This document shows, piece after piece, positions 341-37,811 of a stretch of DNA of 38,279 nt. Made by a program: the position numbers and the translations under genes. This DNA comes from a virus. Below the pieces are notes generated by a model. That model ran no database searches. It was not told the DNA's origin and was given only the letters and a program-made list of their open reading frames with translations. The stretch covers positions 1-38,279 of the IMG/VR virus record IMGVR_UViG_3300008120_006706; one strand, written 5' to 3'. Each line of letters begins with the position of its first letter. Position 1 is the first letter of the stretch.

Positions 341-345
341 TGATT

Positions 346-2143: not shown

Positions 2144-2146
2144 ATT

Positions 2147-2839
2147 ATGAAAGTTTTTAGTTTTTCTTTATTTGGTAATAACCCAATTTATACGATAGGT
2201 ACAATTAAAAATGTTGAATTAATAAATTCTTTATTTCCCGAATGGAAGATATATGTATACACAAACAAAGTTTCGTCCGATCCGATAATATTAGAACTTT
2301 TAAAAAAGGGAGTGAATATAAGGTATGAGGAAGACACACTATGGTTTAATTCTGCATGGAGATTTAAAGCAATAACCGAAGAAAGTGTTGAGGTTATGGT
2401 GTGTAGGGATAGTGATTCTAGAATCTCGGAAAGGGATGTCGCAGCCATAAGTGAATGGTTACATAGTGATTATAACTATCACATAATTAGAGACCACCCA
2501 ATTGGTCATCATTGGGTTATGAACGCGGGTATGTGGGGAGCTAAAAAAAATAACTTTATAAAAAAAATTGACGTTTTTTTAAGTAATTATTTAACCCTAA
2601 ACCAACAATTAAAACACTCAGTTAATTTTGACCAATTGTTTTTAAGGGACGTTATTTACCAAGAAATAAAAAATGATTCTATGATTCACGATGAATATTA
2701 TGGTTATGAATCACATTCAAAACCAATAGAACACGATAGGAAGTCAAATGACTTTGCGTTTATAGGAGAATCGATAGATGAAAACGACCAACCAAGGGGG
2801 GATCAAAGATCACCAATAATTGAACGTTATGGTAAATAA
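2147..2839 (+). CDS. Glycosyltransferase-like protein (GT-A type, DxD)
   Basis: A 230-residue protein. After an N-terminal segment that reads like the nucleotide-sugar half of a GT-A fold (FPEWKIYVYTN, 30-40) comes VMVCRDSDSRISERD (83-97). Its DSD (88-90) fits the metal-binding DxD of GT-A enzymes. This is followed by YHIIRDHPIGHHWVMNAGMWG (111-131), a combination seen in uncharacterised glycosyltransferases of polysaccharide loci and large phages. Donor and acceptor are unknown. Start ATG 2147 lies three bases after the previous stop, in the context TTAAATTATG with no SD. The transferase role is inferred from the DxD and the neighbours. Confidence 0.7.
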   Translation: MKVFSFSLFGNNPIYTIGTIKNVELINSLFPEWKIYVYTNKVSSDPIILELLKKGVNIRYEEDTLWFNSAWRFKAITEESVEVMVCRDSDSRISERDVAAISEWLHSDYNYHIIRDHPIGHHWVMNAGMWGAKKNNFIKKIDVFLSNYLTLNQQLKHSVNFDQLFLRDVIYQEIKNDSMIHDEYYGYESHSKPIEHDRKSNDFAFIGESIDENDQPRGDQRSPIIERYGK

Positions 2840-2853
2840 AACTATATTTTTTT

Positions 2854-4209: not shown

Positions 4210-4937
4210 AAATAGATTATGTTATATTGGGGTCAGATATGAATCCCATGTATTACGATTTTTGGCCGATAGTGTCTAAAATATGGAAGACAGTATATAA
4301 CACAATACCGGTATTAGGTCTAATATGTGATGAAGATTCCGATTTTATTGAAGATGAATACGGTTTAATTAAAAAATTTAAAAAGGTTGATGGTATTGAT
4401 GTTGGGTTACAGTCACAAGTTATACGTTTATATTTGACAAATTTACTTAATGGTAATTTATTAATAAGTGACATAGACATGATACCTATGTCTACAAAAT
4501 ACTTTGTTGATTACGTTAAAACTTTTGATAATAATCGACTATATGTAATGAGTTCAGACAACCAAGAATGTCTTAATAATAGAGAATACCCAATGTGTTA
4601 TAATTTAGGAAGTGATAAATTATTTAAAGATATTTTAGATTTAGGACCTAATTGGGTTGATTTCCTTAAAAAACTCAATGACCTTAATTTAGGATGGACA
4701 ACTGACCAAAATTACCTTTTTAATAAAATTAACGAATATAAAGAGTTAAACCCCGATAATGTTATTTTTTTACAGAGAGGATGGACAAGTAGGGGCGCAA
4801 ATAGAAGAATTGATAGATTATGGTGGTCATATGATGAAGAATTAGTTAAAAATGGTTATTATATTGATTGTCACTCTTTAAGACCTTACAATGACCATAA
4901 AGAAGAAATTAATAGATTAATTAGTTTGATTGTATGA
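4206..4937 (+). CDS. Glycosyltransferase-like protein with DID motif
   Basis: A 243-residue protein beginning DYVILGSDMNPMYYDFWPIV. A central LLISDIDMIPM (85-95) provides a DxD-type metal site (D89, D91) in the position expected for a GT-A transferase, and GLQSQVIRLY just before it is the helix that normally precedes that strand. A later GWTTDQNYLF segment resembles the acceptor side of family 8-like or capsular transferases. Substrates are unknown. Start and stop overlap both neighbours through ATGA junctions, showing tight translational coupling. The fold assignment is by motif only. Confidence 0.65.
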   Translation: MKIDYVILGSDMNPMYYDFWPIVSKIWKTVYNTIPVLGLICDEDSDFIEDEYGLIKKFKKVDGIDVGLQSQVIRLYLTNLLNGNLLISDIDMIPMSTKYFVDYVKTFDNNRLYVMSSDNQECLNNREYPMCYNLGSDKLFKDILDLGPNWVDFLKKLNDLNLGWTTDQNYLFNKINEYKELNPDNVIFLQRGWTSRGANRRIDRLWWSYDEELVKNGYYIDCHSLRPYNDHKEEINRLISLIV

Positions 4938-5689
4938 TTGATTTTATAACCGGTAATAAATTTAAACGATTATGTAATCATTCATTGGATGAATCAGGAT
5001 ACATCAAACACAGCGAACCTAAAAATGGAGAACCGTTGAAGATATTCGTTAAGATAGATAAGATACATCAATTTTTTAAATCGTCACCAAAAGTACCTTT
5101 TATTTTAATTACACATAATGGGGATTTGTCAGTTGGTGGTTCACTTTTAAATTATCTTGATGACCCATATCTAATTTCATGGTATGGTCAAAACATAAAC
5201 ACAGTTCATTATAAGTTAAAATCTATACCAATTGGAATAGCGAATGAAATTTGGCCTCACGGAAATGAAATCGATTTGATGGATATCATTAATGAAGATA
5301 ATAAAAAAGAAAAATTAGTTTATGTAAATTTTGAGATTACTAATTTTAGTAGGAATGATTGTTTAAGAGAATTATCAAAATTTGGATTAGGTTTGGAAGA
5401 AAAAAAACCTTTTAAAGAATATCTTAGGGAACTATCTAAATCTTATTTTGTAATTTCGCCTGAAGGTAATGGTATCGATTGTCATAAGACTTGGGAATCG
5501 TTATATTTGAAAACCATACCTATAGTTACAAGATCGATTAACATTGAAAACTATAGTGATTTACCAATATTAATTATTGATGATTGGTCAAAATTTAACT
5601 TAAATTCCCTATCTACCGATTTGTATTATGATATGATTAAAGATTTTAATCCAGAAACGATTAATATTAAAAATTTTTTAGATGTTTAA
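4934..5689 (+). CDS. Exostosin/GT47-like glycosyltransferase
   Basis: A 251-residue protein whose C-terminal half has YFVISPEGNGIDCHKTWESL (171-190) followed by YLKTIPIV, the arrangement found in exostosin-like (GT47) and related GT-B transferases, where the acidic residue and the 'SPEGxGxDxHRxWE' stretch bind the nucleotide sugar. The N-terminal half contains SWYGQN and KSIPIGIAN, also typical of this group. The donor sugar is unknown. It begins within the stop of the previous gene (ATGA) and overlaps the next start by 8 bases. Confidence 0.65.
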   Translation: MIDFITGNKFKRLCNHSLDESGYIKHSEPKNGEPLKIFVKIDKIHQFFKSSPKVPFILITHNGDLSVGGSLLNYLDDPYLISWYGQNINTVHYKLKSIPIGIANEIWPHGNEIDLMDIINEDNKKEKLVYVNFEITNFSRNDCLRELSKFGLGLEEKKPFKEYLRELSKSYFVISPEGNGIDCHKTWESLYLKTIPIVTRSINIENYSDLPILIIDDWSKFNLNSLSTDLYYDMIKDFNPETINIKNFLDV

Positions 5690-6305
5690 AAAACCTCACC
5701 TAATATCAACATCTGCTTATTTTTTAGATGACCAAATAAGAGAACAACAATATATAAAAAGTTTTGAAGACATTAAAAAACATCAGGAATTATTTGAATC
5801 AATCACCATTATTGAAACAATATCTAAGGTTGATGTGGACTATATAACAAAAACAGAATTTAATAATTATTATTCCGAGATGGGTAATATACACAAGAAC
5901 AAAGGTTTCAACTGGGTTTTACATATTGAAAATTTTTTAAATAATAGTATTATTGGGTTGGATGATGTTGTAATCTTTATTACAGGTAGATATAGATTGT
6001 TGAATGGTGAATTTATTAATATAGTTAATGATTATATGTATGTAAAAGATTATGAAATGTTAGCAAAGGAAGATGGTGACATTTATAATGGTAATGGCGT
6101 ACATACATTTTTAATTTCATTCACAAAGAAAAAATTTTTACATTTTTCTAAATGGTATAAAAAAAAAGGTAACAAAGACACCTGTGTAGAATGGGAAATG
6201 AAAAAATACATGAAAAAACACAGTAAGTGTTTTATTTTGGATAAAAGAATTTTAATAGGCGTTGAAACTAACGTTTTTAATTCAAATGAAAAGTATATAG
6301 TTTAA
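5682..6305 (+). CDS. Unidentified protein of the glycan operon
   Basis: A 207-residue protein I do not recognise with certainty. It has a strand-helix pattern (KPHLISTSAYFL at the N-terminus, DDVVIFITGRYRLLN near 96-110) and the end of many transferase-like proteins (EWEMKKYMKKH then ILDKRILIGVETN). GFNWVLHIENFL could be a substrate-binding segment. No signal peptide or membrane segment is visible. It overlaps the previous gene by 8 bases and the next methyltransferase starts one base after its stop, so it works in the same pathway. A divergent glycosyltransferase is the most likely identity, but this rests on context only. Confidence 0.6.
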   Translation: MFKKPHLISTSAYFLDDQIREQQYIKSFEDIKKHQELFESITIIETISKVDVDYITKTEFNNYYSEMGNIHKNKGFNWVLHIENFLNNSIIGLDDVVIFITGRYRLLNGEFINIVNDYMYVKDYEMLAKEDGDIYNGNGVHTFLISFTKKKFLHFSKWYKKKGNKDTCVEWEMKKYMKKHSKCFILDKRILIGVETNVFNSNEKYIV

Positions 6306-6306
6306 T

Positions 6307-6876
6307 ATGGCACATAAAGAACAAATCGAATATGTTTATTCAGTAAAAAATTTATTTACTGAATATTTTAATAATAAAAAAGTATTGGGGATAGGTACAT
6401 TTGATGTGTGCGGCACTGAAGATATGTTTTTTGATGAGTGTGATTATTCAGGACTAGATATCGGGCCAGGACCTGGTGTTGACATAGTTTGCCCCGCACA
6501 AGATTTTGATGCTCCTGATGAAACATATGATGTCATTATATCTTGTGAATGTTTTGAACATAACCCATATTATAGAGAGACCATTCAAAATGCCGTAAGA
6601 ATGTTAAAGAAAAATGGTTTATTTTTGTTTACTTGTGCTACAACAGGAAGACCTGTTCATGGTACAAAAACCTCTGATGAGATTGATAAACTAAAACATG
6701 AAAATTGGGTTACTATGCCAAATGTCTTTAGGGATGATTGGGATAATGAATATTATAAGAATTTAACAGAAATTGATATTAGGGAGTCTATTGATATAGA
6801 CATTACTTTTAAAAATTATGAATTTAGTGTAAATACAGACCACTGTGATTTATATTTTTGGGGGATTAAGAAATAA
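6307..6876 (+). CDS. Class I SAM-dependent methyltransferase
   Basis: A 189-residue methyltransferase of the Methyltransf_11 kind. The N-terminal SAM loop KVLGIGTFDVCGTED is followed by DYSGLDIGPGPGVDIV, where the second acidic strand should be, then by YDVIISCECFEHNPYYRETIQNAVRML (motif IV with the 'EhF.H' type helix) and a final KKNGLFLFTCAT strand. The GIG loop is a shortened form of the normal ExGxG. Its target is probably a sugar of the glycan built by its neighbours. The start ATG 6307 is in AATATG context with no SD. Confidence 0.75.
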   Translation: MAHKEQIEYVYSVKNLFTEYFNNKKVLGIGTFDVCGTEDMFFDECDYSGLDIGPGPGVDIVCPAQDFDAPDETYDVIISCECFEHNPYYRETIQNAVRMLKKNGLFLFTCATTGRPVHGTKTSDEIDKLKHENWVTMPNVFRDDWDNEYYKNLTEIDIRESIDIDITFKNYEFSVNTDHCDLYFWGIKK

Positions 6877-6884
6877 ATTTAAGT

Positions 6885-7502
6885 ATGAATCTACACGATT
6901 TAGGGTTAAAATATAAAACAGATAAAGCACATTATCATAATTTTACACAAATTTATGATGATGCACTAAAACATTTAATTGGTAAAAATATAAACTTTTT
7001 AGAAATAGGTGTTGAACATGGTTTTTCATTAAAAATGTGGAATGAATTTTTTCAAAACGCAAATATTTTTGGGGCAGACATAGACGATAAAAGTTTTTTA
7101 AATGATAAGAATATTAAAACTTTTAAGGTTGACCAAGAAAACTATTTTGAATTAATCTCATTACCTGGAGATTTGGATGTTATTGTGGATGATGGAGGTC
7201 ATACTATGTTACAACAACAAATAACTTTTAAAACTTTGTTTGATAAAAAACTTAAAAATGGTGGGTATTTTATTTTAGAAGATTTACATACATCAAAAAA
7301 ACCTTATTACCGAACACATGGTAGTAATGATAAGAATAACACATTAAACCTACTGTACGATTTAAAAAATGGGTCATTGTCTAAAAACCACGAATACTAT
7401 ATAAATGATTTTGAATTTAATAATTTATTAAAATTGATTGATGATATTAAAGTTTATGAAGTGGGGGAGGATTCGATAACTTCAATTATAACCAAAAAAT
7501 AA
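6885..7502 (+). CDS. SAM-dependent O-methyltransferase of the macrocin/demethylmacrocin type
   Basis: A 205-residue protein with NFLEIGVEHGFSLKMW (about 37-52) as SAM loop and DLDVIVDDGGHTMLQQQITFKTLF, followed by GGYFILEDLHTS. The 'IVDDGgH' and 'EDLhTS' pair is characteristic, in my recall, of sugar O-methyltransferases acting on macrolide sugars and of homologues in O-antigen loci and phages. The paired acidic residues (VDDGGH) would coordinate the catalytic metal. It follows the other methyltransferase by 8 bases and precedes the fucosyltransferase by 2, which suggests methylation of a fucose or neighbouring sugar; that link is inference. Confidence 0.75.
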   Translation: MNLHDLGLKYKTDKAHYHNFTQIYDDALKHLIGKNINFLEIGVEHGFSLKMWNEFFQNANIFGADIDDKSFLNDKNIKTFKVDQENYFELISLPGDLDVIVDDGGHTMLQQQITFKTLFDKKLKNGGYFILEDLHTSKKPYYRTHGSNDKNNTLNLLYDLKNGSLSKNHEYYINDFEFNNLLKLIDDIKVYEVGEDSITSIITKK

Positions 7503-7504
7503 TT

Positions 7505-8257
7505 ATGGTTACAATTCAATACGCCGGACGATTAGGTAACAATCTGTTTCAATATTCTGCAGCACATATATTTGCAAATAAATTTAATTTAACTCTTAAT
7601 ACTAACCCACCTGAAAATAATTTCGGATTATCAAAATTAAATGGTCTAATAAACGATGGAAAAACCATCATTGTGGATGACGATAATTTTATGGAATTGT
7701 TATCGTCCGACAAAATAGATTCCGCACATTACCATTTCACGGGGTATTTTCAATTAAAAGATTTTATATTAGGGTACCATGAAGAAATAAAAAAGTTATT
7801 TAATTTGAAGTATAGGGATGGTTTAATAGATGAAGTTTTTGTCATTTATAGAATAGGTGATATTAATGGTGAACGACAAATGTTACCTATAGAGTACTAC
7901 GAAGAGTCTTTAAACAATATAAAGTTTAATCATGGTTATATAAGTTCGGATACTCCTGACCACCCAAATATTAAAAAATTGATTTCAAAATTTAACCTAA
8001 CTCTATATAACGATACTCCAATCAATACAATTGATTTTGCCAAAAACTTTAATAAATTGGTTTTAAGCGAGGGTAGTTTTAGTTGGTGGATTGGTTTTCT
8101 AAGTAATGCCAAAAAAATATACTTTAACAAAAGAGAAAGATTCTGGCACGGGGATATATTTGTACTACCCGATTGGGACCATTTAAGTTATGATTGGGAC
8201 AAATCTTGTGTTGGTGATAAAAATAAATTAAATTGTAATAAAATTATAAAACTATGA
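7505..8257 (+). CDS. Alpha-1,2-fucosyltransferase-like protein (GT11)
   Basis: A 250-residue GT11 protein that would transfer L-fucose from GDP-fucose to a glycan. The N-terminus has the family signature QYAGRLGNNLFQYSAA (5-20). The C-terminal SEGSFSWWIGFLS matches the 'S.SSFSwWaawL' block that follows the GDP-binding site. The donor motif HxRxGD of the family appears here as IYRIGD (114-119): arginine, glycine and aspartate are kept but the histidine position is isoleucine. The two enzymes making GDP-L-fucose are encoded three genes downstream, so donor and transferase come from the same operon. The downstream SGNH gene begins in its stop (ATGA). Confidence 0.82.
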   Translation: MVTIQYAGRLGNNLFQYSAAHIFANKFNLTLNTNPPENNFGLSKLNGLINDGKTIIVDDDNFMELLSSDKIDSAHYHFTGYFQLKDFILGYHEEIKKLFNLKYRDGLIDEVFVIYRIGDINGERQMLPIEYYEESLNNIKFNHGYISSDTPDHPNIKKLISKFNLTLYNDTPINTIDFAKNFNKLVLSEGSFSWWIGFLSNAKKIYFNKRERFWHGDIFVLPDWDHLSYDWDKSCVGDKNKLNCNKIIKL

Positions 8258-8898
8258 TACATTGTATAGGTGATAGTCACTCATCGGTTTTTAGCGGTAA
8301 AGATGAAATGATGCCAATATGGCCTCAAAGATCGTTAGACACAACGGAATTTTTTAAAAGCTACAGAATTGGTCCAGCAACGGCATACCAGTTAGATAAC
8401 AAAAAACCAATCCTTAATGATATTATTTTTAATAACGTTAATAAAACAAACGATAGTGTACTTTTTTGTTTCGGGGAGGTAGACATTCGAGCACATTTAA
8501 TCAAACAAATTAATTTACAAGAGTTAACAAAATTTGAAATAGTTAAAGAGTGTGTTGACAGATATGTTAATGTTATGTTACACTATAAAGAACTAGGTTA
8601 CGATATCATAGCATGGGGTCCTATTGCGTCATGGCATGAAGATAAACCATACACCACAGGACCTAGTTATGGAACTTGTTTAGAAAGAAATACTATTACT
8701 AAAGAGTTCAATGATTATCTTTCAGAATTATGTTTAAAAAATGATATTAAATTCGTCAGCATCTTTAAGGACATGGTAGATGAAAATTTAAACACAAAAC
8801 ACGAATATCTAGACGATTGGGAAGGTTGTCATATACATTTAAATCAAAAAGCATTACCTTTAATTATTAAAGAATTTAAAGACAAGACTTTAATATGA
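8254..8898 (+). CDS. SGNH/GDSL-like hydrolase
   Basis: A 214-residue protein starting MIHCIGDSHS, with block I GDSH (6-9) giving the nucleophilic serine. Block III appears as FGEVDIR (73-79) in place of GxND, and the C-terminal CHIHLNQKA supplies the DxxH-type histidine. Such SGNH enzymes act as esterases or O-acetyl transfer/removal enzymes on polysaccharides. No signal peptide is visible, so it probably works in the cytoplasm. It shares ATGA junctions with both neighbours. The glycan-modifying role is inference from position and fold. Confidence 0.7.
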   Translation: MIHCIGDSHSSVFSGKDEMMPIWPQRSLDTTEFFKSYRIGPATAYQLDNKKPILNDIIFNNVNKTNDSVLFCFGEVDIRAHLIKQINLQELTKFEIVKECVDRYVNVMLHYKELGYDIIAWGPIASWHEDKPYTTGPSYGTCLERNTITKEFNDYLSELCLKNDIKFVSIFKDMVDENLNTKHEYLDDWEGCHIHLNQKALPLIIKEFKDKTLI

Positions 8899-9335
8899 TA
8901 CTAATATCTCACAGAGGTAACATAAATGGGCGGATGGAGTCATACGAAAATGAACCAAATTATATTGATTTAGCGATAAAAAAAGGATATGATGTTGAAA
9001 TAGATGTTTGGTTTAAAGACGACATTTTATGGTTGGGTCACGATAAACCAGATTATGAAATTGATTTAAAATTTATTAGGGATAGAAGTTCCAAACTTTG
9101 GGTCCATTGTAAAAATGTTGAATCAGTTGTGTTCTTCAAAGAATGTGGATATGAAATAAATTACTTTTGGCACGAAACCGATTGTGTCACATTAACGAGT
9201 AAAAATCACATTTGGGCTTATCCAGGTAAACAAAAAATTAAAGGTAGCATCGCAGTAATGCCAGAATTATTTAATGATGATGTTTCCGATTGTTTGGGAG
9301 TTTGTAGTGATTTTATAGAAAATTTTAAAAAATGA
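8895..9335 (+). CDS. Short glycerophosphodiester phosphodiesterase-like protein
   Basis: A 146-residue protein that keeps the core of the GDPD/PI-PLC TIM barrel: ISHRGN (4-9) with the catalytic His-Arg, an acidic ENEP (18-21), VEIDV (34-38) with the metal-binding E and D, and LGHD (47-50) with the second histidine. Its length is only about half that of typical GDPD enzymes, so it is either a minimal barrel or one with a shortened C-terminal half. It might hydrolyse or transfer a phosphodiester on a glycan or lipid. It overlaps both neighbours via ATGA. Similar short proteins occur in capsule loci; the exact substrate is unknown. Confidence 0.65.
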   Translation: MILISHRGNINGRMESYENEPNYIDLAIKKGYDVEIDVWFKDDILWLGHDKPDYEIDLKFIRDRSSKLWVHCKNVESVVFFKECGYEINYFWHETDCVTLTSKNHIWAYPGKQKIKGSIAVMPELFNDDVSDCLGVCSDFIENFKK

Positions 9336-10309
9336 AAAAAGCAATTATTACAGGAATTAATGGGCAAGATGGGTCTTACTTATCTGAGTTATTATTAGAA
9401 AAAGGTTATGAGGTTTGGGGTACGGTAAAACGAAATTCAGTTTCTGAAACACAATCTTCTAGAATTGAACACTTACACACTTCAGGTTTAATAAATTTAG
9501 AATATGCAGATTTGACAGATATGGCCTCTTTAATAAGGATTTTGAATAGGGTTCAGCCCGATGAGGTATATAATTTAGCGGCACAATCACACGTAAGAAT
9601 TAGTTTTGACCAACCAATTTACACCGCCAATGTTACGGGAGTAGGAACATTAAATCTTTTAGAAGCGGTTAGGCTGGTTTCCCCACATTCAAAAATATAT
9701 CAGGCATCTTCTTCTGAAATGTTTGGTAATACTATTGATTCCGATGGATACCAAAGAGAAACAACACCTATGAATCCAGTATCTCCATACGGGTGTGCGA
9801 AAGTATTTTCATATAATATTTGTAGGAATTATAGAAATTCGTATGAAATGAAAATATGGAATGGAATTCTTTTTAACCATGAATCACCAAGACGAGGAAC
9901 TAATTTTGTTACAAATAAAGTTGTAAAGGCGGCGGTTAGAATTAGTCTCGGATTACAAGATAAATTACATATTGGTAACTTATCAGCAACTAGAGATTGG
10001 GGACACGCAAAAGATTACGTACATGCTATGTGGTTGATGTTACAATCAGATAGACCTGATGATTACGTTTGTGCAACTGGGGTTTCACATTCAGTACAAG
10101 ATTTATGCAGTTATGTATTCAGCTCTTTGGGGTTAGATTATATGGACCACATTGTTGTTGACGAAAAACATTTTAGACCTGAGGAATTAGAAAACTTAAA
10201 AGGGGATTCCACTAAATTAAGAAAAGATCTATCATGGCAACCTGAATACACATTTGAAACTATGTTAGATGAGATGATAAACTATTGGTTAGAATATTAT
10301 GGAAAATAA
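9332..10309 (+). CDS. gmd: GDP-mannose 4,6-dehydratase
   Basis: Converts GDP-D-mannose to GDP-4-keto-6-deoxymannose, the first step to GDP-L-fucose. The 325-residue protein has the NADP Rossmann loop TGINGQDGSYL (7-17), the RxSSxxxxRI-type segment KRNSVSETQSSRI (33-45), AAQSHVRISFD (83-93), the catalytic SSSEMFGNT (126-134) and YGCAK (153-157) with active-site Tyr and Lys, and NHESPRRGTNFVTNK for substrate binding. All are the Gmd hallmarks, although the chain is shorter than E. coli Gmd (373). The GDP-mannose supply genes are not in the window, so the host pool is presumably used. The fucose synthase gene overlaps its end by 11 bases. Confidence 0.95.
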   Translation: MKKAIITGINGQDGSYLSELLLEKGYEVWGTVKRNSVSETQSSRIEHLHTSGLINLEYADLTDMASLIRILNRVQPDEVYNLAAQSHVRISFDQPIYTANVTGVGTLNLLEAVRLVSPHSKIYQASSSEMFGNTIDSDGYQRETTPMNPVSPYGCAKVFSYNICRNYRNSYEMKIWNGILFNHESPRRGTNFVTNKVVKAAVRISLGLQDKLHIGNLSATRDWGHAKDYVHAMWLMLQSDRPDDYVCATGVSHSVQDLCSYVFSSLGLDYMDHIVVDEKHFRPEELENLKGDSTKLRKDLSWQPEYTFETMLDEMINYWLEYYGK

Positions 10310-22431: not shown

Positions 22432-24159
22432 TCAAGTCAAATGTTCTAACTCCATCAACTGTGCTTTGATAGGTGTAAAGTTGAATGGATTGTACATTGT
22501 AGGTGTCAATTGTAGAGGTACATATGGTGCGTAAACGTAACCAGTATCTAACAATGAAGTACCTTTATGTCCTAACAACACTGTGTTTGGTGGGAAGTAA
22601 GGGTCACGGTAAACTTGGTAACGACCAGCTAATGTACCAACTCTTTCAATACCCATGTTGTATTGGTCTTGCTCAGGAGATGCGTTAGATACGTGGAAGT
22701 ATTCTAAATCGTCAAAGATAGCTGAAATCTCAGAAGATACAACAATCCAGTTAGCTCCACCTCTTAATGTAGATTTGTGGATTTGTGCTGAAATTTGGTT
22801 GATCGCTGTAATCAATGTTTGATTCCAATCTTTTTGAGTGTATTGAGTTAATGGGTTAGCTGTAGTACCTCTCTTCCATCCGTTGTAGTCCCAACGTAAT
22901 GTCCAAGCCGCACCTTTACGTAAGTCACGTAAAATTTCACGGTCAATTTCTGCTGCAACTTGCTCAGATAATAAAGCTGTTAATTCAGCTTCAGCATCGA
23001 TGTTGTGGAATGCAGAAACGTCTTGTGCTAATTCTGGAGACCATTGAGCTCTTAGTTTTCTTTCTGTAACAGATACAGTTACTGACTCAAGGTCAAAAGA
23101 AACCTCACCAATTTTATCTTCAAATTCTAATTCTTTGTAGATTCTATAAGTAACCGCGAATTGACTACTTAATGCTGTAGTTCCAGCAACAAGTGTAGTA
23201 ATACCTGAATACCCGTCTAATGAGTTTGAACCTACAGAACAAGGTACTTGACAGTCAACCTCTAAATAAATGATACCATTAGCATCACAAATATTATCAT
23301 ATGAACCACCGTTACCTGAACCTGGCCAAGAAGTTGTTGTTTGTGTACCATATTGTACAATTCCTTTACCATATTTTTGAGTTACAACTCTAAATAATAA
23401 GTCCTGTGATCCTAATCCTGAGAATGCACCAGTGCTAACTGCAGTAACTTGTAAATCAGATAAGAACGCTTCGTTATCCATTTCTTGCCCATCAGGACCG
23501 ATTAATTTACCAGCACCTCCAGATGTGAATCCAGACAAAGAAATTAAAACTTTTCTATATTCACCGATTGGGTAACCGTAAGGAATTAAACCTGAAGTAC
23601 CAGACCATGCAACTGTAGTTACAACTCCTGTTTTAGCAGAGTAAGTACCTTTTGAATAGTCAAATAATCCAGCTGGATCTAATGTAGGTTCGTTACCTTC
23701 ATAGAATTGGTCGTAAAGGTTTGTGTTACCATAAGTAGAACCTGCACCGTAACCAGTTTGTTGAGTTTGACCGTCAGCACCTGGTGCTCCGAATGGTGCG
23801 TAGTGCTCGTTACCTGAGGTATACCCTTGAATTTTAGGTACAAAGTAGAACAATTTACCGATAGGTAAGTTCATTGCTTGTACTGATACTAAATCGTTAG
23901 CCAACAATTTAGAGAATACACGTCTTACGATAGGGAAAACTACAGTTTCGAAAGAACCTGAGCTATCTGTAGATGCTGCTTCGTTAATTAGGTGAGACGC
24001 TTGGTTTTCATATAACTGTGCCATGTTCTCTTTGATGTGTCCTTTAAGACCGTCTAGGAATCCTAATTTATCCCATTTGTTAATTGTATCTTCTTTGATA
24101 ACTTTAAGGTGCTTAAGACCGATGTTACCAACAAGACCTGATTCTAATAATGCTCCCAT
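22432..24159 (-). CDS. Major capsid protein, T4 gp23-like
   Basis: A 575-residue capsid shell protein of the T4 HK97-fold type (T4 gp23 has 521). The N-terminal about 60 residues form a helical propeptide ending in SHLINEAAS (55-63); an (I/L)xE cleavage after E60 fits the T4 prohead protease rule and would release the mature chain. Beyond it, TVVFPIVRRVFSKLLANDLVSVQAMNLPIGKLFYF is the typical gp23 start of the mature domain, and AEAELTALLSEQVAAEIDREILRDL is its conserved long helix. Codon choice is less AT-rich than in neighbouring genes, as for highly expressed genes. The upstream context is A-rich without SD. Order scaffold then capsid is as in T4. Confidence 0.93.
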   Translation of the reverse strand: MGALLESGLVGNIGLKHLKVIKEDTINKWDKLGFLDGLKGHIKENMAQLYENQASHLINEAASTDSSGSFETVVFPIVRRVFSKLLANDLVSVQAMNLPIGKLFYFVPKIQGYTSGNEHYAPFGAPGADGQTQQTGYGAGSTYGNTNLYDQFYEGNEPTLDPAGLFDYSKGTYSAKTGVVTTVAWSGTSGLIPYGYPIGEYRKVLISLSGFTSGGAGKLIGPDGQEMDNEAFLSDLQVTAVSTGAFSGLGSQDLLFRVVTQKYGKGIVQYGTQTTTSWPGSGNGGSYDNICDANGIIYLEVDCQVPCSVGSNSLDGYSGITTLVAGTTALSSQFAVTYRIYKELEFEDKIGEVSFDLESVTVSVTERKLRAQWSPELAQDVSAFHNIDAEAELTALLSEQVAAEIDREILRDLRKGAAWTLRWDYNGWKRGTTANPLTQYTQKDWNQTLITAINQISAQIHKSTLRGGANWIVVSSEISAIFDDLEYFHVSNASPEQDQYNMGIERVGTLAGRYQVYRDPYFPPNTVLLGHKGTSLLDTGYVYAPYVPLQLTPTMYNPFNFTPIKAQLMELEHLT

Positions 24160-26036: not shown

Positions 26037-26747
26037 TTATTTACCTAAATAATCGGACAATCTTTTCATTAAGTCAACAGATTTATCCAATCCTGAACCT
26101 AAAACATCAATATTATTGTGTTCGTCTAACTTTTCCTCGTAAGCCGGTCTATCTTCTTTATTTAAGTAAAGATATGCCCCTGGTGTGGATGGCGAAGACA
26201 CAAGGTCAAAACAAATTAATTCAAAATCATCTTGAACTTCGTTTTGGTCACCCTTTTTTACTAATGAACCGACACCACGAGAAGATACCCCCATAGTAAC
26301 CCCTTGTCTCATCATGTTAGCTGCAACATCACCTTTTGATGATACAATACCTCTTTCATGAAAACCAGGTGTAGTTAATAGTTTAATCTTACCCATTAAT
26401 ACGTTACCTTCCCACCACATGTCCGTAATAAGGTGGGATACTCTATCTAAATCAATCAAGGAAGATTCAGGGTGATTTAATTCTGATATAGACATACCGC
26501 GTTTAATAATCTCTTGGTATTTTTCAGCTTCTCTTTTTAATATTTTTTCAGGATAAATCCTACCGTTTCTATTTGGTACTCCATGTTTTTGTAAAGTGGC
26601 ATAAAAAACAAAAGGTTTAGAATGTTCCAATTGCCCGTATGATTCTTTTATAACTTCGGTATTTCTTGTATCGTTTGGGTTAATGTATCCTGCGTCCCAT
26701 TCCACAAGTATACCTTTACCACTATCATTTGGTCCTAAAATTCTCAT
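26037..26747 (-). CDS. Prohead core protease, T4 gp21-like
   Basis: A 236-residue serine protease that matures the prohead by cutting scaffold and capsid proteins at (L/I)xE sites. Family features are visible: NRNGRIYP (59-66) near the substrate cleft, the catalytic histidine in ELNHPESS (89-96, H92), and the catalytic serine in GVSSRGVGS (153-161). DFELICFDLVSSPSTPGAYL is the conserved C-terminal block of T4-like proteases. The gene order portal, protease, scaffold, capsid confirms the role. ATG 26747 has two overlapping TATTTATT boxes upstream and no SD. Confidence 0.9.
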   Translation of the reverse strand: MRILGPNDSGKGILVEWDAGYINPNDTRNTEVIKESYGQLEHSKPFVFYATLQKHGVPNRNGRIYPEKILKREAEKYQEIIKRGMSISELNHPESSLIDLDRVSHLITDMWWEGNVLMGKIKLLTTPGFHERGIVSSKGDVAANMMRQGVTMGVSSRGVGSLVKKGDQNEVQDDFELICFDLVSSPSTPGAYLYLNKEDRPAYEEKLDEHNNIDVLGSGLDKSVDLMKRLSDYLGK

Positions 26748-27260: not shown

Positions 27261-27290
27261 CAAAATTAAATGTGGTTGTCAAAAATCAAA
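27261..27290 (-). promoter_or_regulatory. Bacteroidota-type promoter candidate (minus)
   Basis: On the minus strand TTTG, 18 bases, then TAATTTTG; the last base lies 39 bases before ATG 27221. This fits the -33 TTTG / -7 TAnnTTTG consensus, with a spacer slightly shorter than usual. It overlaps the bS21 upstream region on the other strand, making a compact divergent control region. Confidence 0.45.
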
Positions 27291-27300
27291 AAAATACTGA

Positions 27301-27308
27301 TATTTATA
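27301..27308 (+). promoter_or_regulatory. TATTTATA box upstream of bS21
   Basis: TATTTATA preceded by GA, 19 bases before ATG 27328 and 5 bases before the AGGAGG. It is the same box as upstream of capsid-region genes and suggests late expression of the ribosomal protein. Role inferred. Confidence 0.5.
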
Positions 27309-27313
27309 CCAAA

Positions 27314-27319
27314 AGGAGG
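27314..27319 (+). promoter_or_regulatory. Strong Shine-Dalgarno AGGAGG of the bS21 gene
   Basis: AGGAGG followed by an 8-base AT spacer and ATG 27328, a canonical SD. Almost all other starts in the window lack one, as expected for Bacteroidota translation. In flavobacteria the host rpsU is reported to keep a strong SD for feedback control, so this site probably does the same. Confidence 0.85.
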
Positions 27320-27327
27320 AAAAAAAT

Positions 27328-27510
27328 ATGATTATAGTACCAGTTAAAACACCTAACTCTATTGAGCAAGCACTCAAACAATATAAATTTAAAGTCTACA
27401 AAACAAAACAACTTGAGAAATTAAGGGAGAGACAGGAGTTCACAAAACCTTCAGTAATTAAAAGAGAACAAAAGAAAAAGGCAGCTTACTTACAAAAAAA
27501 TAATAAGTAA
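27328..27510 (+). CDS. rpsU: Phage-encoded ribosomal protein bS21
   Basis: A 60-residue basic protein: MIIVPVKTPNSIEQALKQYK followed by YKTKQLEKLRERQEFTKPSV and IKREQKKKAAYLQK. The 'RQ.fTKPSv.kR...kkA.Y.qk' block is that of Bacteroidota bS21. bS21 binds the 30S platform next to the 3' end of 16S rRNA; in Flavobacterium it helps block the anti-SD with bS18 and bS6. The gene is a lone plus-strand insertion in a minus-strand head module, with its own TATTTATA box and a strong AGGAGG. Its stop abuts the stop of the convergent holin-like gene. Phage bS21 genes are known in other large phages, where late expression has been reported. It probably replaces or competes with host bS21 to shift initiation. 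Confidence 0.92.
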   Translation: MIIVPVKTPNSIEQALKQYKFKVYKTKQLEKLRERQEFTKPSVIKREQKKKAAYLQKNNK

Positions 27511-27744
27511 TTATTTATCTTGTTTTTTGTGAGTAAAGAAATCAACTGAGGTTAAACCCAAACAACCAAAAGCCAAAAGACCAACAGCATCAACTAAGGT
27601 TGTTGAAGGTTCGTATTTTCCACAACTAAACATAGAAATAAATAAAGCTACTATTAGTGACAAGCCACAAAGTAGACCTACAAATCTTTTAGAAGAGATA
27701 CCACCGTTGGCACCTTCCATCATTGATTTAAAAAATCTAATCAT
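27511..27744 (-). CDS. Small membrane protein, possible holin
   Basis: A 77-residue protein with two probable membrane helices, about 21-39 (FVGLLCGLSLIVALFISMF) and 49-70 (LVDAVGLLAFGCLGLTSVDFF), a basic N-terminal segment and a short charged C-terminal tail (THKKQDK). Size and two-helix layout fit class II holins, but no endolysin is visible beside it and many small phage membrane proteins look alike. It overlaps the upstream gene by 4 bases (translational coupling) and converges with bS21 with no gap. Confidence 0.55.
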   Translation of the reverse strand: MIRFFKSMMEGANGGISSKRFVGLLCGLSLIVALFISMFSCGKYEPSTTLVDAVGLLAFGCLGLTSVDFFTHKKQDK

Positions 27745-28491: not shown

Positions 28492-30312
28492 TTACTTATC
28501 TAATAAAGATCTCACTTTTTGGTCTATTTCGATTAACGAATTTCTCCCTTTAGATAATTCCATCACGTCAGCCGCACTAAATAACGTCATTTCCTCAAGT
28601 ATCAAATCAAGTCCATCCTTATTAAAACTTTCTGGTGTTACACCACCGGCTTCGGGTGCAGGGGCTTCAGGTGGTGGAGGAGCTGCAGCACCACCGAGGT
28701 CACCACCCATATCAGTTTCACCAGCACCTGGTGATTCACCACCAGATTCAGATGATGGTTCACCATCTTTTTTACCGTATAATTGGTCTATGGTATCGAA
28801 TAAACCTGTTTTTGGTATAATTTCTGCGGTTTTACCTAATTCGGCCGCAACTGCTCTTTCTACTCTTTGTTGTTGAATGTCTAATCTTATTTCTTCGTCT
28901 GAGAAACCTAAAACATGTTTTTTAGCCCATGATGCAGATACCGGTGCTACTGAATCAGCAATTGGTGTTACTGCGTCTTTATACAGTAGTATTTTCTCTT
29001 TCCATAATTCTATTGATAATAGTTCGGATTGTTTTGACGGGTTATGTAATCCTAAAGTAAAATTAGTTAGTTCATCTTCAAATCCTAACAAGAATAGGTG
29101 AATGATTGCAATTTTGTTTAGTTCTGCAATCATAGATTTTTGAATTCTATTAATTGTTCTAGCAAACCTAATATCTAATAATGATAAATTTTTACCATCG
29201 CCTACAGCCTCTTCAAAACCAAGATATGCTTTAGGAATTCTTAATGCTGTTACCAACTTCTTTTGGATATATTCAATATCTGCAATTTCCGCTAAGTTAG
29301 TTCCACCTGGTAGTGTTTCTATAGGGTTTGTTGCTGCAGGGTCACGAACAGGGATAAAATAATCTTGGTCTACTGCCATTTGATTATACCTCATATCAAC
29401 ATTACCAGTTGAATGGTCAACAATTTGGTCCCTTTTAAATTTATTTGCAACTCTTTGTACATAAGGGTCAACATCTTTGTCGTCCATGTTTCCAACAAAG
29501 ACTTTAAAAACCCTTCTTTCAGGCGCCCTGGATACACGATATATTAACATTGCATCTTCAGATAATAAAAGTTGTTTCCAAATACGTCTCGCCTTTTCCA
29601 ACATAGAAGTTCCATAAGGAAGTTTTCTATCATCACCTAAAATCCTAAAGTGTGCTATTTCCCAAGTATTGAATTCCATGTTCTTTTCTTTCCAAGTAAA
29701 TTTCAAAGCATCGTTTTCCATTTCTTGTGAATACTTGTCAGGCTGAAATCTCATACCTTTTTCTAACCTTTCTATTTGAATGTTTGGTAATTGTTGGCAT
29801 CCAACAATACCCTTTTCAGGGTCTAACTTTAGATAAACAAAATTATCACCGAATTTACATGTATTTCTCGTCCACATTGGTAGATTTGTATTGATGTCTA
29901 ATTTGTTAACGAATAAGTCTATCAATACGGATTTTATTCTTTTGGACTCTGAATAAACTTTTAATATTAATCCATCTTGGTCTGGTGTTGTTGATTCCTC
30001 AGAATATATGTCAAGTGCTGCAGATATTTCAGGTGTATACTCCATAGACTCATAATCATAATATGAAGCCATCCTTGTAGGTTCATAATAAACAGCTTGC
30101 TGATAAAGATTATTCTCAACTTTTTGCCACTGTTGACCAATGTACATAGTTTGTTGGGACTGCAGTTTTTCTTTTTCAAACTCAGTTTTGTCTGTTGTTT
30201 TGAGTAATTCTTTTTTATCAAATTTGAATACGGGTGATTGTTGGTCAAGGGTCGCATTAGGACCAAATGTCCTACTCAATCTTTGCCACACCGTTAGTTT
30301 TTGTTCTGACAT
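28492..30312 (-). CDS. Portal protein, T4 gp20-like
   Basis: A 606-residue portal protein, the dodecameric DNA gate at one capsid vertex (T4 gp20 has 524). The conserved start WQRLSRTFGPNATLDQ and the block YYDYESMEYTPEISAALDIYSEESTTPD (about 74-101) are typical of T4-like portals, as are NLPMWTRNTCKFGDNFVYL, the RAPERRVFKVFVGNM segment and the YIQKKLVTALRIPKAYLGFEE block. The C-terminus adds a Gly/Pro/Glu-rich tail (about residues 520-575) absent from T4 gp20, ending in a helix. It follows the terminase gene by about 40 bases on the same strand. Confidence 0.93.
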   Translation of the reverse strand: MSEQKLTVWQRLSRTFGPNATLDQQSPVFKFDKKELLKTTDKTEFEKEKLQSQQTMYIGQQWQKVENNLYQQAVYYEPTRMASYYDYESMEYTPEISAALDIYSEESTTPDQDGLILKVYSESKRIKSVLIDLFVNKLDINTNLPMWTRNTCKFGDNFVYLKLDPEKGIVGCQQLPNIQIERLEKGMRFQPDKYSQEMENDALKFTWKEKNMEFNTWEIAHFRILGDDRKLPYGTSMLEKARRIWKQLLLSEDAMLIYRVSRAPERRVFKVFVGNMDDKDVDPYVQRVANKFKRDQIVDHSTGNVDMRYNQMAVDQDYFIPVRDPAATNPIETLPGGTNLAEIADIEYIQKKLVTALRIPKAYLGFEEAVGDGKNLSLLDIRFARTINRIQKSMIAELNKIAIIHLFLLGFEDELTNFTLGLHNPSKQSELLSIELWKEKILLYKDAVTPIADSVAPVSASWAKKHVLGFSDEEIRLDIQQQRVERAVAAELGKTAEIIPKTGLFDTIDQLYGKKDGEPSSESGGESPGAGETDMGGDLGGAAAPPPPEAPAPEAGGVTPESFNKDGLDLILEEMTLFSAADVMELSKGRNSLIEIDQKVRSLLDK

Positions 30313-30350: not shown

Positions 30351-32126
30351 TTAAACCCTTTTACCACTGAATAACCATAAATACTTTTCATAATCGCTTT
30401 TAGTTAAGCTATTTCTTTGGTAACTGTTGTGGTCTCTTGTTGATGCAGGTAATCCAGGATTAAAACTAGTGTATTCATTTTGATAACTATTATTTTCAAC
30501 AGACCATGATTCTAACATTGCTTTTGTTTGTTCGGTAACTTTTTCTAATTGAGCAAAAGACGTTTCGGCTACGTATACTGCCATAGCAAAAGACATTATT
30601 AAATCATCGTGTTGACCTTTTTGGTGGTCGGGTCTACCGTTTACGTAAACAAACGTATTCAACTCATTAAATAATCTTTGTGATCTTACTGAAAAATCAT
30701 ACCTTAACGCTTCCTCAAACGCTTGTATAATCAATACCCTTTTAGCATTAAAGTTAATGCCAGGTATTTTGTCATTAGCTTTAGGATTCCATTTCCATTT
30801 GTCAGCAGGATTAACTCCATCAACGTATAAATTTTTATATCCTAACTCCTGTAATTTTCTTGATGTGGATACCCCCATACCTCCAGTGATATCTGTTACT
30901 ATTAGAGCACCGTACATAGTACCCCATTTATATGCGATTTCCGCCAATACATCGGGAGGTATTTTTCCAATATATTCTAAAACTTGTTCTCTATCATCAA
31001 AATCTATTATTGATATTGTGCTAAAGTCTTCACTATCACCTCTTGAGACATCGACACCCATAATATACTTGTGACCTATAATTGGTTCTTTCCACTGCCA
31101 CAAAGCACCTCCCATAAATTTGTTTACGGGTTCTTTAATATGGTTTTCTTTAATTTTTTTCATCGTTTCAGGTGGTATAACATTATCCCCCGAACCTAAA
31201 AAATTACACTCTAGCTCTTGTGATATTTTTCTTTTATCAAACTTTAATTTTTTTGCCATGGCTTCAAACCATGAACTATATGCCTTATACCCCTTTTCTA
31301 TTTTTTCTTTAATATCCTCAAAATTTCTATCACTTACTTTAATTTCTGAATAATCTAAGATAATCTCATTATCATTATAGTCAGCTCTATTTAACATGTA
31401 ATGAACAATATCATCACATTTTATTAGTTTTAAATCTTTAGAATATCTTGGGTCTCGATACCAATACATTTCAGTTATTCTAAAATCATTCATACCTTTA
31501 ATTGCCTGACTATATATTGAATAATAAATTGGGTCGAATCCATTTGGTGTTGAAATTACGATTACTTTACCTCCTGTTGAAAGGGATGCCATACACGCAG
31601 ACCAGAAATCTTCATCTGCATTTATATATGCCGCCTCGTCGAATATAAGAATAGTAGGAGTGTACCCCCTAAGGGCATCTTTTGATGTTGCAACAGCCTT
31701 AACCTCACATCCGTTTGTTAATTTAAAATGTCTTTGTGAATTTTTTTCGTTAGAAAATGTTACCCCTAACCAAGATGGCCACTGTTCAACGAAAGCCCTA
31801 ACTTTATTTGCCATCTCAACAGCGGTATCCATTTTGTTTGCAATAATCAAAATCTTTTCGGGTTTTGACTTTTTAGCAAAAATTAACCTTTTTGATGCCC
31901 AAGCTGAAGTTACTGTTGATACTCCTGCCTGTCTATATTTTAACGCGATGTTTTCTTCGCATTCATCATAGTCTTTTACGAGAGTTACTTGGTCATTGAA
32001 TAGTTCTAATGGAACGTATTTGGATTGTGTATTATCGTAAGTTTGTAAATATGTTTTTAGCGCATAAGGTGTGTCGTTTACACACTTAGCATATTCTAAT
32101 AATATTTGTTCTTTTGATAATGACAT
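30351..32126 (-). CDS. Large terminase subunit, T4 gp17-like
   Basis: A 591-residue packaging motor with ATPase and nuclease domains. The Walker A position is YRQAGVST (64-71), in which the usual lysine of GK(T/S) is absent, a form also seen in other phage terminases. Walker B is TILIFDEAAY (158-167, D163/E164) and the coupling motif STPNG (192-196). The nuclease domain starts at IMGVDVSRGDSEDFSTISII, whose first Asp is the metal ligand, and HDDLIMSFAMAVY near the C-terminus supplies the last acidic residues. No intein or frameshift is visible. It starts 5 bases after the DUF3008-like gene. Confidence 0.93.
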   Translation of the reverse strand: MSLSKEQILLEYAKCVNDTPYALKTYLQTYDNTQSKYVPLELFNDQVTLVKDYDECEENIALKYRQAGVSTVTSAWASKRLIFAKKSKPEKILIIANKMDTAVEMANKVRAFVEQWPSWLGVTFSNEKNSQRHFKLTNGCEVKAVATSKDALRGYTPTILIFDEAAYINADEDFWSACMASLSTGGKVIVISTPNGFDPIYYSIYSQAIKGMNDFRITEMYWYRDPRYSKDLKLIKCDDIVHYMLNRADYNDNEIILDYSEIKVSDRNFEDIKEKIEKGYKAYSSWFEAMAKKLKFDKRKISQELECNFLGSGDNVIPPETMKKIKENHIKEPVNKFMGGALWQWKEPIIGHKYIMGVDVSRGDSEDFSTISIIDFDDREQVLEYIGKIPPDVLAEIAYKWGTMYGALIVTDITGGMGVSTSRKLQELGYKNLYVDGVNPADKWKWNPKANDKIPGINFNAKRVLIIQAFEEALRYDFSVRSQRLFNELNTFVYVNGRPDHQKGQHDDLIMSFAMAVYVAETSFAQLEKVTEQTKAMLESWSVENNSYQNEYTSFNPGLPASTRDHNSYQRNSLTKSDYEKYLWLFSGKRV

Positions 32127-35774: not shown

Positions 35775-37811
35775 ATGATCGAATCGATAGACGGAAATGA
35801 AAAACCAAAAAACACATCTAAAGACAAATCATCTAAAACTCCGGTTCTAGATAATTTTTCAAGAGATCTTATTAAAGCCGCGGAAGACGGTAAATTAGAC
35901 CCTGTGATAGGTAGAGAAAATGAAATAAATAGAATTGCTCAAATTCTATCAAGAAGAAAAAAGAATAACCCAATTATTTTGGGTGAACCAGGTTGTGGTA
36001 AAACTGCAATTGTGGAAGGTTTAGCAAAAAAAATATTTGAGGGAGATTGTCCGCAAAATTTAGCCAATAAAAGAATTGTATCTCTTGATATGACTTCTGT
36101 AGTTGCCGGTACGAAATATCGTGGTCAGTTTGAGGAAAGAATGAAAGTTATTATGGAGGAGTTATATGATAATCCTGATATTATTATTTTTATTGATGAG
36201 ATACATACTATGATTGGTGCCGGTAATTCATCGGGTTCTATGGATGCTTCAAATATATTCAAACCAGCATTATCCCGTGGCGAATTACAGTGTATTGGTG
36301 CAACCACATTAGAAGAGTACCGTAAAAACATTGAAAAGGATGGTGCACTCGAAAGAAGGTTTCAAAAAGTGGTTGTAGACCCATCCACAAAAGAAGAGAC
36401 ATTACTAATATTACAACAGTCTAAAGAGAGATATGAGAATTATCACAAAGTAATTTATAGTGATGAAATCATGAAACTATGTGTTGAGTTAGCCGATAGA
36501 TATATTACTGATAGAGAATTTCCTGATAAAGCATTTGATATAATCGATGAGGTAGGTGCTAGGTCTCAGGTTGAAATTAAACTTCCCGAAATTATCGAAG
36601 ACCTTAAAAAACAGGCTTTAAAAATTAAAGAAGAAAAACTCGATGTGATAACCAAACAAAGGTATGAAGAGGCTGCGAACCTTAGGGATAAAGAAAGAAA
36701 AATTTTATCTGAGTTAGAATTAGAAAAAGAAAAGTTTGAAAAAAATAGAGATTTATACAAAAGGGTTGTTACCGAAGACGTTGTTTATGATGTGGTTTCT
36801 TTGATGACAAAAATTCCAGTTAATAAAATATCAACGGACGAAACACAACAACTTGTTAGTCTTAAGGAAAACTTGGGTACTAAGGTAATTGGTCAAGAAG
36901 ACGCAGTAAGTCGTATCACAAGAGCAATCCAAAGAAACAAAGTTGGTTTAAATGACCCTAAAAAACCAATCTTTAGTGGATTGTTGATTGGTAACTCTGG
37001 TGTCGGTAAAACTGAGTTAGCAAAACAATTGGCAAAACACATGTTCAATAGTGAAGATGCGTTAATCAGATTAGATATGAGTGAGTTTTCTGATAAGATT
37101 TCAACATCAAAATTAACAGGAACTTCACCAGGTTATGTTGGATATGAAGAGGGGTCCCCTTTCTTAAACAAAATCAAAAACAAACCTTACTCTGTAATTT
37201 TGTTAGATGAGATTGAAAAAGCACACCCGGATATCTTCAATGTGTTTCTACAAATGTTAGATGAAGGTATGTTAACTGATGGACATGGAAGAAAAATTAA
37301 TTTCAAAAACTGTATCATTTTGATGACATCAAACGTGGGTACAAAAGTGGTACAAGATTTTGGTTCGGGTGTTGGTTTTTCCACTTCTGCGAAAACTGAA
37401 AGAAAAGATGAAGAAATTAAATCTTTATTAGAAAAAGAATTATTTAAAAAGTTCGCACCTGAATTCATCAACCGTTTTGATGACATCGTTTACTTCAAAG
37501 ATTTGAACCAAGATGATTTATTAAAGATTGTTGATTTAGAGTTAAATAAATTCTATGAAAGAATTGAAAAATTAGAATATACGGTTGATGTTGATGATAC
37601 TTTGAAGAAACACTTAATCGAGGTTGGGACTGACACAAGATTTGGAGCACGTATTTTGAAAAGAACGGTTCAGAAGTGGGTGGACGATGCAATTACAGAA
37701 AAGATTTTAACTGACAACCCTGAAAAAGGTTCTAAATTTATCCTTACTTATAACGACAAAGAAAAGAAAACTGACGTTAAAATAAAAAAACCAACAAAAA
37801 GAAAGAAATAA
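35775..37811 (+). CDS. ClpC/ClpA-like AAA+ unfoldase lacking the N-domain
   Basis: A 678-residue protein with two AAA+ modules. Module 1: Walker A GEPGCGKT (70-77), pore loop GTKYRGQFEER (112-122), Walker B IIFIDE (137-142). A UVR-like helical insert with KQRYEEAANLRDKERK (294-309) is typical of ClpC. Module 2: Walker A GNSGVGKT (406-413), Walker B ILLDEIEKA (475-483), Arg-finger region EFINRFDD (563-570). GVGF (532-535) fits the hydrophobic ClpP-docking loop. The usual 140-residue Clp N-domain, which recruits adaptors and substrates, is replaced by a 25-residue polar tail. It may pair with host ClpP or act alone as a disaggregase. No phage ClpP gene is in the window. Confidence 0.9.
   Translation: MIESIDGNEKPKNTSKDKSSKTPVLDNFSRDLIKAAEDGKLDPVIGRENEINRIAQILSRRKKNNPIILGEPGCGKTAIVEGLAKKIFEGDCPQNLANKRIVSLDMTSVVAGTKYRGQFEERMKVIMEELYDNPDIIIFIDEIHTMIGAGNSSGSMDASNIFKPALSRGELQCIGATTLEEYRKNIEKDGALERRFQKVVVDPSTKEETLLILQQSKERYENYHKVIYSDEIMKLCVELADRYITDREFPDKAFDIIDEVGARSQVEIKLPEIIEDLKKQALKIKEEKLDVITKQRYEEAANLRDKERKILSELELEKEKFEKNRDLYKRVVTEDVVYDVVSLMTKIPVNKISTDETQQLVSLKENLGTKVIGQEDAVSRITRAIQRNKVGLNDPKKPIFSGLLIGNSGVGKTELAKQLAKHMFNSEDALIRLDMSEFSDKISTSKLTGTSPGYVGYEEGSPFLNKIKNKPYSVILLDEIEKAHPDIFNVFLQMLDEGMLTDGHGRKINFKNCIILMTSNVGTKVVQDFGSGVGFSTSAKTERKDEEIKSLLEKELFKKFAPEFINRFDDIVYFKDLNQDDLLKIVDLELNKFYERIEKLEYTVDVDDTLKKHLIEVGTDTRFGARILKRTVQKWVDDAITEKILTDNPEKGSKFILTYNDKEKKTDVKIKKPTKRKK

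What the first reader, a model, noticed from the sequence alone, without database searches (positions are those of the whole stretch)
27301..27510. Phage bS21 gene keeps the strong SD that Bacteroidota use to sense bS21
The sequence shows a Bacteroidota-type bS21 gene with AGGAGG 8 bases before ATG, while nearly all other starts here lack SD. Published work on Flavobacterium johnsoniae indicates that bS21, with bS18 and bS6, hides the anti-SD, that bS21-free ribosomes can use SDs, and that host rpsU is regulated this way. The phage copy therefore looks as if it carries a complete autoregulatory switch: it would be translated by bS21-free ribosomes and then close the anti-SD. That could retune host ribosomes during late infection.
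Basis: partly seen in the sequence, partly recalled or inferred. Interest (0 to 1): 0.85.

Follow-up and report, generated by a model that had tools for sequence, protein, structure and literature searches.

The report
Phage bS21 with a gained Shine-Dalgarno
A virus of Bacteroidota bacteria carries its own copy of ribosomal protein bS21 and, unlike nearly all its relatives, has acquired in front of it the kind of start signal that these bacteria use almost only to sense a shortage of bS21; whether the virus exploits this is plausible but unproven.

Summary
ORF 27328-27510 (+, 60 aa) is a Bacteroidota-type bS21 (PF01165, Tyr54 kept). AAAGGAGG lies 8 nt before its ATG and is the strongest SD of 44 genes here, and of 165 genes in a 166-kb sister contig whose other starts avoid SDs.

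"Keeps" is wrong. The gene belongs to the known lake-phage bS21 family of Chen et al. 2022, whose members almost all lack an SD. In unbiased scans 212 distinct phage bS21 genes (108 lineages) gave only two SD+ lineages: this clade (12 contigs) and a 735-kb phage. A three-protein tree puts this clade inside SD-less relatives, so the SD was gained, probably in an A-rich leader.

It is an 8-bp core (-10.4 kcal/mol), weaker than the 9-13-bp host rpsU signal (< -13). It equals the AGGAGGU reporter that bS21 loss stimulated 1.7- to >2-fold in Flavobacterium johnsoniae, so partial sensing of bS21-free ribosomes is plausible.

A chance gain is not excluded: about 0.6 such lineages are expected by chance. 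In favour, a second group of phages, including that 735-kb phage, has SDs at diverged bS21 genes, in three of five contigs as the strongest SD present. No published SD analysis of phage bS21 was found.

The parts
27328..27510 (+). bS21 (rpsU) gene, 60 aa, Bacteroidota type with Tyr54
   Evidence: PF01165 5.7e-11; aligned end to end with F. johnsoniae bS21 7jil, KAAY(54)xQ shared
27312..27319 (+). Shine-Dalgarno AAAGGAGG, 8 nt from GGAGG to ATG
   Evidence: 8 bp with 16S tail ACACCUCCUUUCU, -10.35 kcal/mol, strongest of 44 genes
27301..27308 (+). TATTTATA box, probable promoter element of the bS21 transcript
   Evidence: About 15-fold enriched upstream of genes on the coding strand in this phage family, at -27..-19 and -13..-11; conserved in SD-less relatives. 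Assignment as promoter is inferred
27276..27284 (+). TTGTCAAAA, conserved upstream block 19 nt (from TTGTCA) before the box
   Evidence: TTGTCAAAA shared by all six aligned relatives; -35/-33 role inferred
27320..27327 (+). A-rich spacer AAAAAAAT with A at -3 and -6, the SD-independent initiation signal of Bacteroidota
   Evidence: sequence; A-3/A-6 role from PMC9976891
26775..27221 (-). divergent conserved neighbour, 148 aa, unknown function
   Evidence: detected in 250 bS21 loci of the family
27511..27744 (-). convergent small membrane protein, 77 aa
   Evidence: ORF; no confident Pfam match
28492..30312 (-). T4-type portal protein
   Evidence: PF07230 2.6e-76
30351..32126 (-). T4-type large terminase
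   Evidence: PF03237 7e-13
26037..26747 (-). prohead protease
   Evidence: PF03420 1.5e-24
22432..24159 (-). Gp23-type major capsid protein
   Evidence: PF07068 1.2e-64

Best explanation
The gene is a phage-borne Bacteroidota-type bS21 in the conserved structural-gene block of a T4-like phage family already described from lakes. In the small lineage that includes the window, the short A-rich leader gained an 8-bp SD. Shown by sequence: the gene, the SD, its near uniqueness in the phage genome and its derived origin. Inferred: the mRNA starts about 14-17 nt before ATG, so the SD sits near its 5' end; ribosomes complete with bS21 hide the anti-SD and translate it at a basal rate from the A-rich leader; 30S subunits lacking bS21 have a free anti-SD and translate it about 2-fold better; the phage bS21 made, which keeps Tyr54, then completes those subunits and closes the anti-SD. 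The phage would thereby direct its bS21 to bS21-free ribosomes and compete there with host rpsU mRNA, with negative feedback weaker than the host's.
For: bS21 SD is rank 1 of 44 genes (window), 1 of 165 (G002) and 1 of 73 (G001) in genomes that avoid SDs. Tyr54 present; aromatic residue (Y, H or F) at position 54 in 199 of 212 distinct phage bS21. Its pairing energy (-10.35) equals that of AGGAGGU (-10.28), which in F. johnsoniae gave >2-fold (delta-C), 1.7-fold (Y54A) and 1.7-fold (depletion) more reporter. SD retained in two sublineages with 88% identical proteins and 5 of 15 fourfold sites changed. Independent parallel: a second phage group (L118/L373, L380, L455, L456, L457; bS21 50-85% identical) has GGAGG before bS21; it ranks first in G164 (next best only -3.9), G165 and G167, second in G166, third in G163.
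Against: 106 of 108 phage bS21 lineages do without an SD, so it is not needed for phage bS21 function. Only 8 bp, against 9-13 bp and < -13 kcal/mol described as characteristic of, and probably required for, host autoregulation. About 0.6 lineages with such a site are expected by chance; P(at least 1) 0.45, P(at least 2) 0.12. Leader conservation between sublineages (19 of 20 nt) is high but not unique: 5 of 30 orthologous leaders reach 19-20. GGAG is partly paired in the predicted mRNA of the window, less so in the sister. The second group was found mainly by an SD-positive search, so its SD frequency is biased, and its likely relatives L492 and L493 lack an SD. Host and transcription start are inferred.
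Confidence: 0.43

Rival explanations
1. Chance: the SD arose by one or a few changes in an A/G-rich leader (relatives read AAAAAGAGAAAAAA or AAAAGGAAAAAA) and persists in one recent lineage without function, the gene still being initiated through its A-rich leader.
For: About 0.6 lineages with such a site expected among 108, two seen; leaders of relatives are a few changes away; conservation not above that of several other leaders; the family as a whole does without it.
Against: The phage otherwise has fewer strong SDs than mock positions (4 against 13 at <= -5 in G002), so a stray SD should be disfavoured; bS21 is the one gene predicted beforehand to have one; parallel SDs in a second phage group.
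Confidence: 0.35
2. Plain translation booster: the host of this lineage uses SDs to some degree (or its anti-SD is only partly hidden), and the SD simply raises bS21 output late in infection, with no feedback.
For: Late, high expression of phage bS21 reported by Chen et al. (PMC9723584); some Bacteroidota orders use SDs on other ribosomal genes.
Against: No other highly expressed late gene (capsid, portal, terminase) has an SD in the window or G002, and SDs are depleted overall.
Confidence: 0.14
3. GGAGG acts in DNA or as the 5' end of the transcript (promoter escape, mRNA stability or binding site of a phage regulator), not as an SD.
For: With the TATTTATA box at -27, by analogy with T4 late promoters the start of transcription would fall at about -14 to -17, inside or just before AAAGGAGG.
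Against: SD-less relatives have the same box without G-rich start sequence; spacing to ATG is right for an SD; other genes with the box lack the motif.
Confidence: 0.06

Closest known systems
Host rpsU autoregulation by bS21-free ribosomes, Flavobacterium johnsoniae (McNutt et al. 2023, PMC9976891)
   Same: Same gene, same kind of signal, the only strong SD in an SD-avoiding genome, Tyr54 protein that hides the anti-SD; short leader (25 nt native in host, about 14-17 nt inferred here)
   Different: Pairing 8 bp (-10.4) against 9-13 bp (< -13); phage-borne second copy under a phage-type promoter; SD gained de novo rather than shared by the family; no experiment
Bacteroidota bS21 phages of freshwater lakes (Chen et al. 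2022, PMC9723584)
   Same: Same gene block (bS21 on the opposite strand amid terminase, portal, protease and capsid genes), same bS21 type, T4-like
   Different: No analysis of SDs before bS21 was found in that paper; here most members prove SD-less and one clade SD-positive
Huge phages with rpS21 (Al-Shayeb et al. 2020, PMC7162821), e.g. LR756501, 735 kb, predicted Bacteroidetes host
   Same: Encodes a bS21 of the same family with AAAGGAGG before ATG
   Different: Different phage lineage; its background has more SD-like sites
Pelagibacter phage HTVC008M bS21 (Mizuno et al. 2019, PMC6375957)
   Same: Phage bS21; shown to enter E. coli ribosomes
   Different: SD-using host; its bS21 leader has only AAAGGGU, -3.7

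Membership tests
Ribosomal protein bS21 (PF01165) | match to the family model above cut-off | tested here: met
   42.4 bits against 27
Bacteroidia-type anti-SD-hiding bS21 | Tyr54 (aromatic) stacking on A1534 | tested here: met
   Y54 aligned with Y54 of 7jil chain z; contact itself not tested
Bacteroidia-type anti-SD-hiding bS21 | incorporates into the 30S and hides the anti-SD with bS18 and bS6 | not testable with these tools
   needs ribosome experiments; no bS18 or bS6 gene found in six phage records, so host partners would be required
Chen et al. bS21 phage family | bS21 on opposite strand within terminase/portal/protease/capsid block | tested here: met
rpsU autoregulation by bS21-free ribosomes | bS21 gene has the strongest SD of the genome | tested here: met
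   rank 1 of 44 (window) and 1 of 165 (sister)
rpsU autoregulation by bS21-free ribosomes | extended pairing, 9-13 bp, below -13 kcal/mol | tested here: not met
   8 bp, -10.35 kcal/mol; RNAduplex -12.2
rpsU autoregulation by bS21-free ribosomes | SD conserved among homologues | tested here: not met
   2 of 108 phage lineages; derived gain
rpsU autoregulation by bS21-free ribosomes | translation rises when bS21 is depleted | not testable with these tools
   needs reporter assay

The most novel reading that the evidence does not exclude
Phages of Bacteroidota have at least twice evolved or retained an SD solely on their bS21 gene in order to be read by the host's bS21-free ribosomes, so that the phage protein is made by, and completes, the very subunits the host would otherwise refill: a phage that taps a specialised ribosome pool.
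Probability: 0.27. Interest if true: 0.75.

Novelty: new variant of a known kind. Interest (0 to 1): 0.45.

Why it matters
Host bS21 autoregulation is the clearest bacterial case of a specialised ribosome, and why phages carry bS21 is open. This survey indicates that phage bS21 genes are as a rule free of the host's SD control (no SD, sometimes no predicted leader), which fits a phage wanting bS21 regardless of need. One clade, and separately a group that includes a 735-kb phage, break that rule. Comparing SD-plus and SD-minus leaders of near-identical phages gives a ready natural experiment on whether phages exploit bS21-free ribosomes.

Tried and rejected
'SD inherited from the host': rejected for this clade, since the three-protein tree nests it in SD-less relatives and the site lacks the GGU(GU) 3' extension of host rpsU. 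'SD-using phage genome': rejected, SDs are depleted in G002. 'Phage supplies the whole anti-SD pocket': no bS18 or bS6 found in six records. GGAGG in L536/L556 is 16-17 nt from ATG, upstream of a TATATG box, and not counted as an SD. A first 16S-tail search used the wrong motif (GGATCACC) and was repeated with GGAACACC. One viral scan was wasted on a miscounted pattern.

Full report
WHAT IS THERE. The window is one whole 38,279-base IMG/VR fragment from the late region of a T4-like phage: Gp23 capsid, T4-type portal and terminase, prohead protease, PhoH and a Clp-type ATPase. On the opposite strand to the portal/terminase/protease/capsid block lies a 60-aa bS21 gene, 27328-27510 (PF01165 5.7e-11). 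Its best solved relative is F. johnsoniae bS21 (7jil), aligned without gaps with Tyr54 conserved. The order (terminase, portal, 243-aa protein, small membrane protein, bS21 reversed, 148-aa protein, protease, capsid) matches the family of Chen et al. 2022 (PMC9723584); the 148-aa neighbour was detected in 250 of the fetched loci.

THE SD. CCAAAAGGAGGAAAAAAATATG: AAAGGAGG at 27312-27319, 8 nt from ATG. Tails of 16S genes found in Bacteroidia genomes read ACACCUCCUUUCU in nearly all cases, which pairs 8 bp with the phage site, -10.35 kcal/mol by an ungapped nearest-neighbour sum with initiation. In the window this is first of 44 genes, next best -5.8; in the 166-kb sister contig G002, first of 165, next best -6.2; in G001, first of 73. 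G002 has fewer SD-like sites before starts than at mock positions (mean -0.82 against -1.63), the SD avoidance known from Bacteroidota.

NOT 'KEPT' BUT GAINED. Of the 80 nearest relatives in IMG/VR only the 11 closest have the SD. Over the unbiased scans (and INPHARED), 377 contigs with bS21 reduce to 212 distinct genes and 108 lineages at 85% identity. Two lineages have a properly spaced strong SD: this clade and the 735-kb phage LR756501. A concatenated tree (portal, 243-aa protein, 148-aa neighbour; 85 taxa) places the SD-positive sequences in one clade (support 1.0), nested in SD-less sisters L013, L015, L023 and L066 (1.0). Relatives' leaders (for example GTAAAAAGAGAAAAAATT in L015) are a few changes away. 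Host rpsU leaders, where they have an SD, read e.g. AGAAAGGAGGUUG; the strong ones are 9-12 bp and -12 to -18.6 kcal/mol. The phage site lacks the GGU and the extension.

IS IT MORE THAN CHANCE? In this phage family 3 of 544 non-bS21 genes have GGAGG at -20 to -4. For one chosen gene that is p about 0.005, but over 108 lineages 0.6 are expected, P(at least 1) 0.45 and P(at least 2) 0.12. The two sublineages (88% protein identity, 156/183 nt, 5 of 15 fourfold sites changed) share 19 of 20 leader nucleotides; mean over 30 orthologous leaders is 15.0, and five reach 19-20. This is weak evidence for selection. Two all-collection pattern scans for GGAGG plus a bS21 start found, besides the contigs of this clade (11 loci, 12 contigs counting the window), a second set: L373 (a 735-kb-type phage), L380, L455, L456, L457, with bS21 proteins 50-85% identical, low G+C, and SDs of -6.9 to -12.1 kcal/mol. 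In their contigs bS21 ranks first (G164, 99 genes, next best -3.9; G165, 19 genes; G167, 63 genes), second (G166) and third (G163). They group together in a bS21 tree with modest support, along with SD-less L492 and L493. Because these contigs were found through their SD, the frequency is biased, but SDs recurring within one diverged group suggest constraint there. Al-Shayeb et al. predict Bacteroidetes hosts for their five genomes above 634 kb.

HOW IT MAY WORK. McNutt et al. showed that bS21, with bS18 and bS6, hides the anti-SD, that bS21-free ribosomes read strong SDs, and that rpsU is thereby autoregulated; they describe extended pairing (< -13 kcal/mol) as characteristic. Yet their 7-nt AGGAGGU reporter responded >2-fold (delta-C), 1.7-fold (Y54A) and 1.7-fold (depletion). 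Its energy by the same sum is -10.28, the same as the phage site. A partial response of about 2-fold is therefore the quantitative prediction; the full host-type switch is not. The A-rich spacer keeps A at -3 and -6, so basal SD-independent translation should persist. The TATTTATA box at 27301-27308 is about 15-fold enriched before genes of this family, at -27..-19 and -13..-11. By analogy with T4 late promoters (own knowledge) the transcript would start near -14 to -17, leaving the SD at or near the 5' end; the native host leader is 25 nt. In the window the predicted fold partly pairs GGAG with early codons (energy no better than shuffles); in the sister this is weaker. No bS18 or bS6 gene was found in six phage records, so any pocket uses host partners.

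WHAT IS KNOWN. Phage bS21 in Bacteroidota, its Tyr54 and its late expression are published (PMC9723584); phage bS21 entering ribosomes is published for a pelagiphage (PMC6375957); host autoregulation is published, with speculation on phages but no look at phage leaders in the passages read. In the held library I found no analysis of SDs before phage bS21; subscription papers and preprints are not covered.

VERDICT. Real, correctly read sequence; interpretation partly right. New within a known kind: a phage bS21 lineage that secondarily carries the host-style signal, in a family that otherwise does without it. Function unproven; chance remains a serious rival.

Noticed in passing
window, G002, G005, G007, G008, G010 gene starts: TATTTATA box strongly enriched upstream of genes on the coding strand, with one peak at -13..-11 from ATG (position of a late promoter if ATG is +1), suggesting that many late mRNAs of this family are leaderless.
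   Followed up: partly
L476, L498, L511, L536 and similar loci: Another phage group has ATATATG/ATATTTG boxes directly before the bS21 ATG, suggesting leaderless bS21 mRNA, outside any SD control.
   Followed up: no
L083-L086, L125-L128 (Flagellimonas/Muricauda genomes G013, G014): These chromosomes carry two extra SD-less bS21 genes that group with phage copies, besides the normal rpsU with an 11-bp SD.
   Followed up: partly
L118 / LR756501 position 542927 and L373: The 735-kb phage has AAAGGAGG 4 nt before its bS21 ATG.
   Followed up: partly
window 35775-37811: Complete ClpA/ClpB-like double AAA ATPase; a phage factor removing host bS21 was speculated by McNutt et al., no link tested here.
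   Followed up: no
window 316-10309: Cluster of sugar-nucleotide, methyltransferase-like and glycosyltransferase-like genes in a phage late region; functions judged from the ORF translations only.
   Followed up: no
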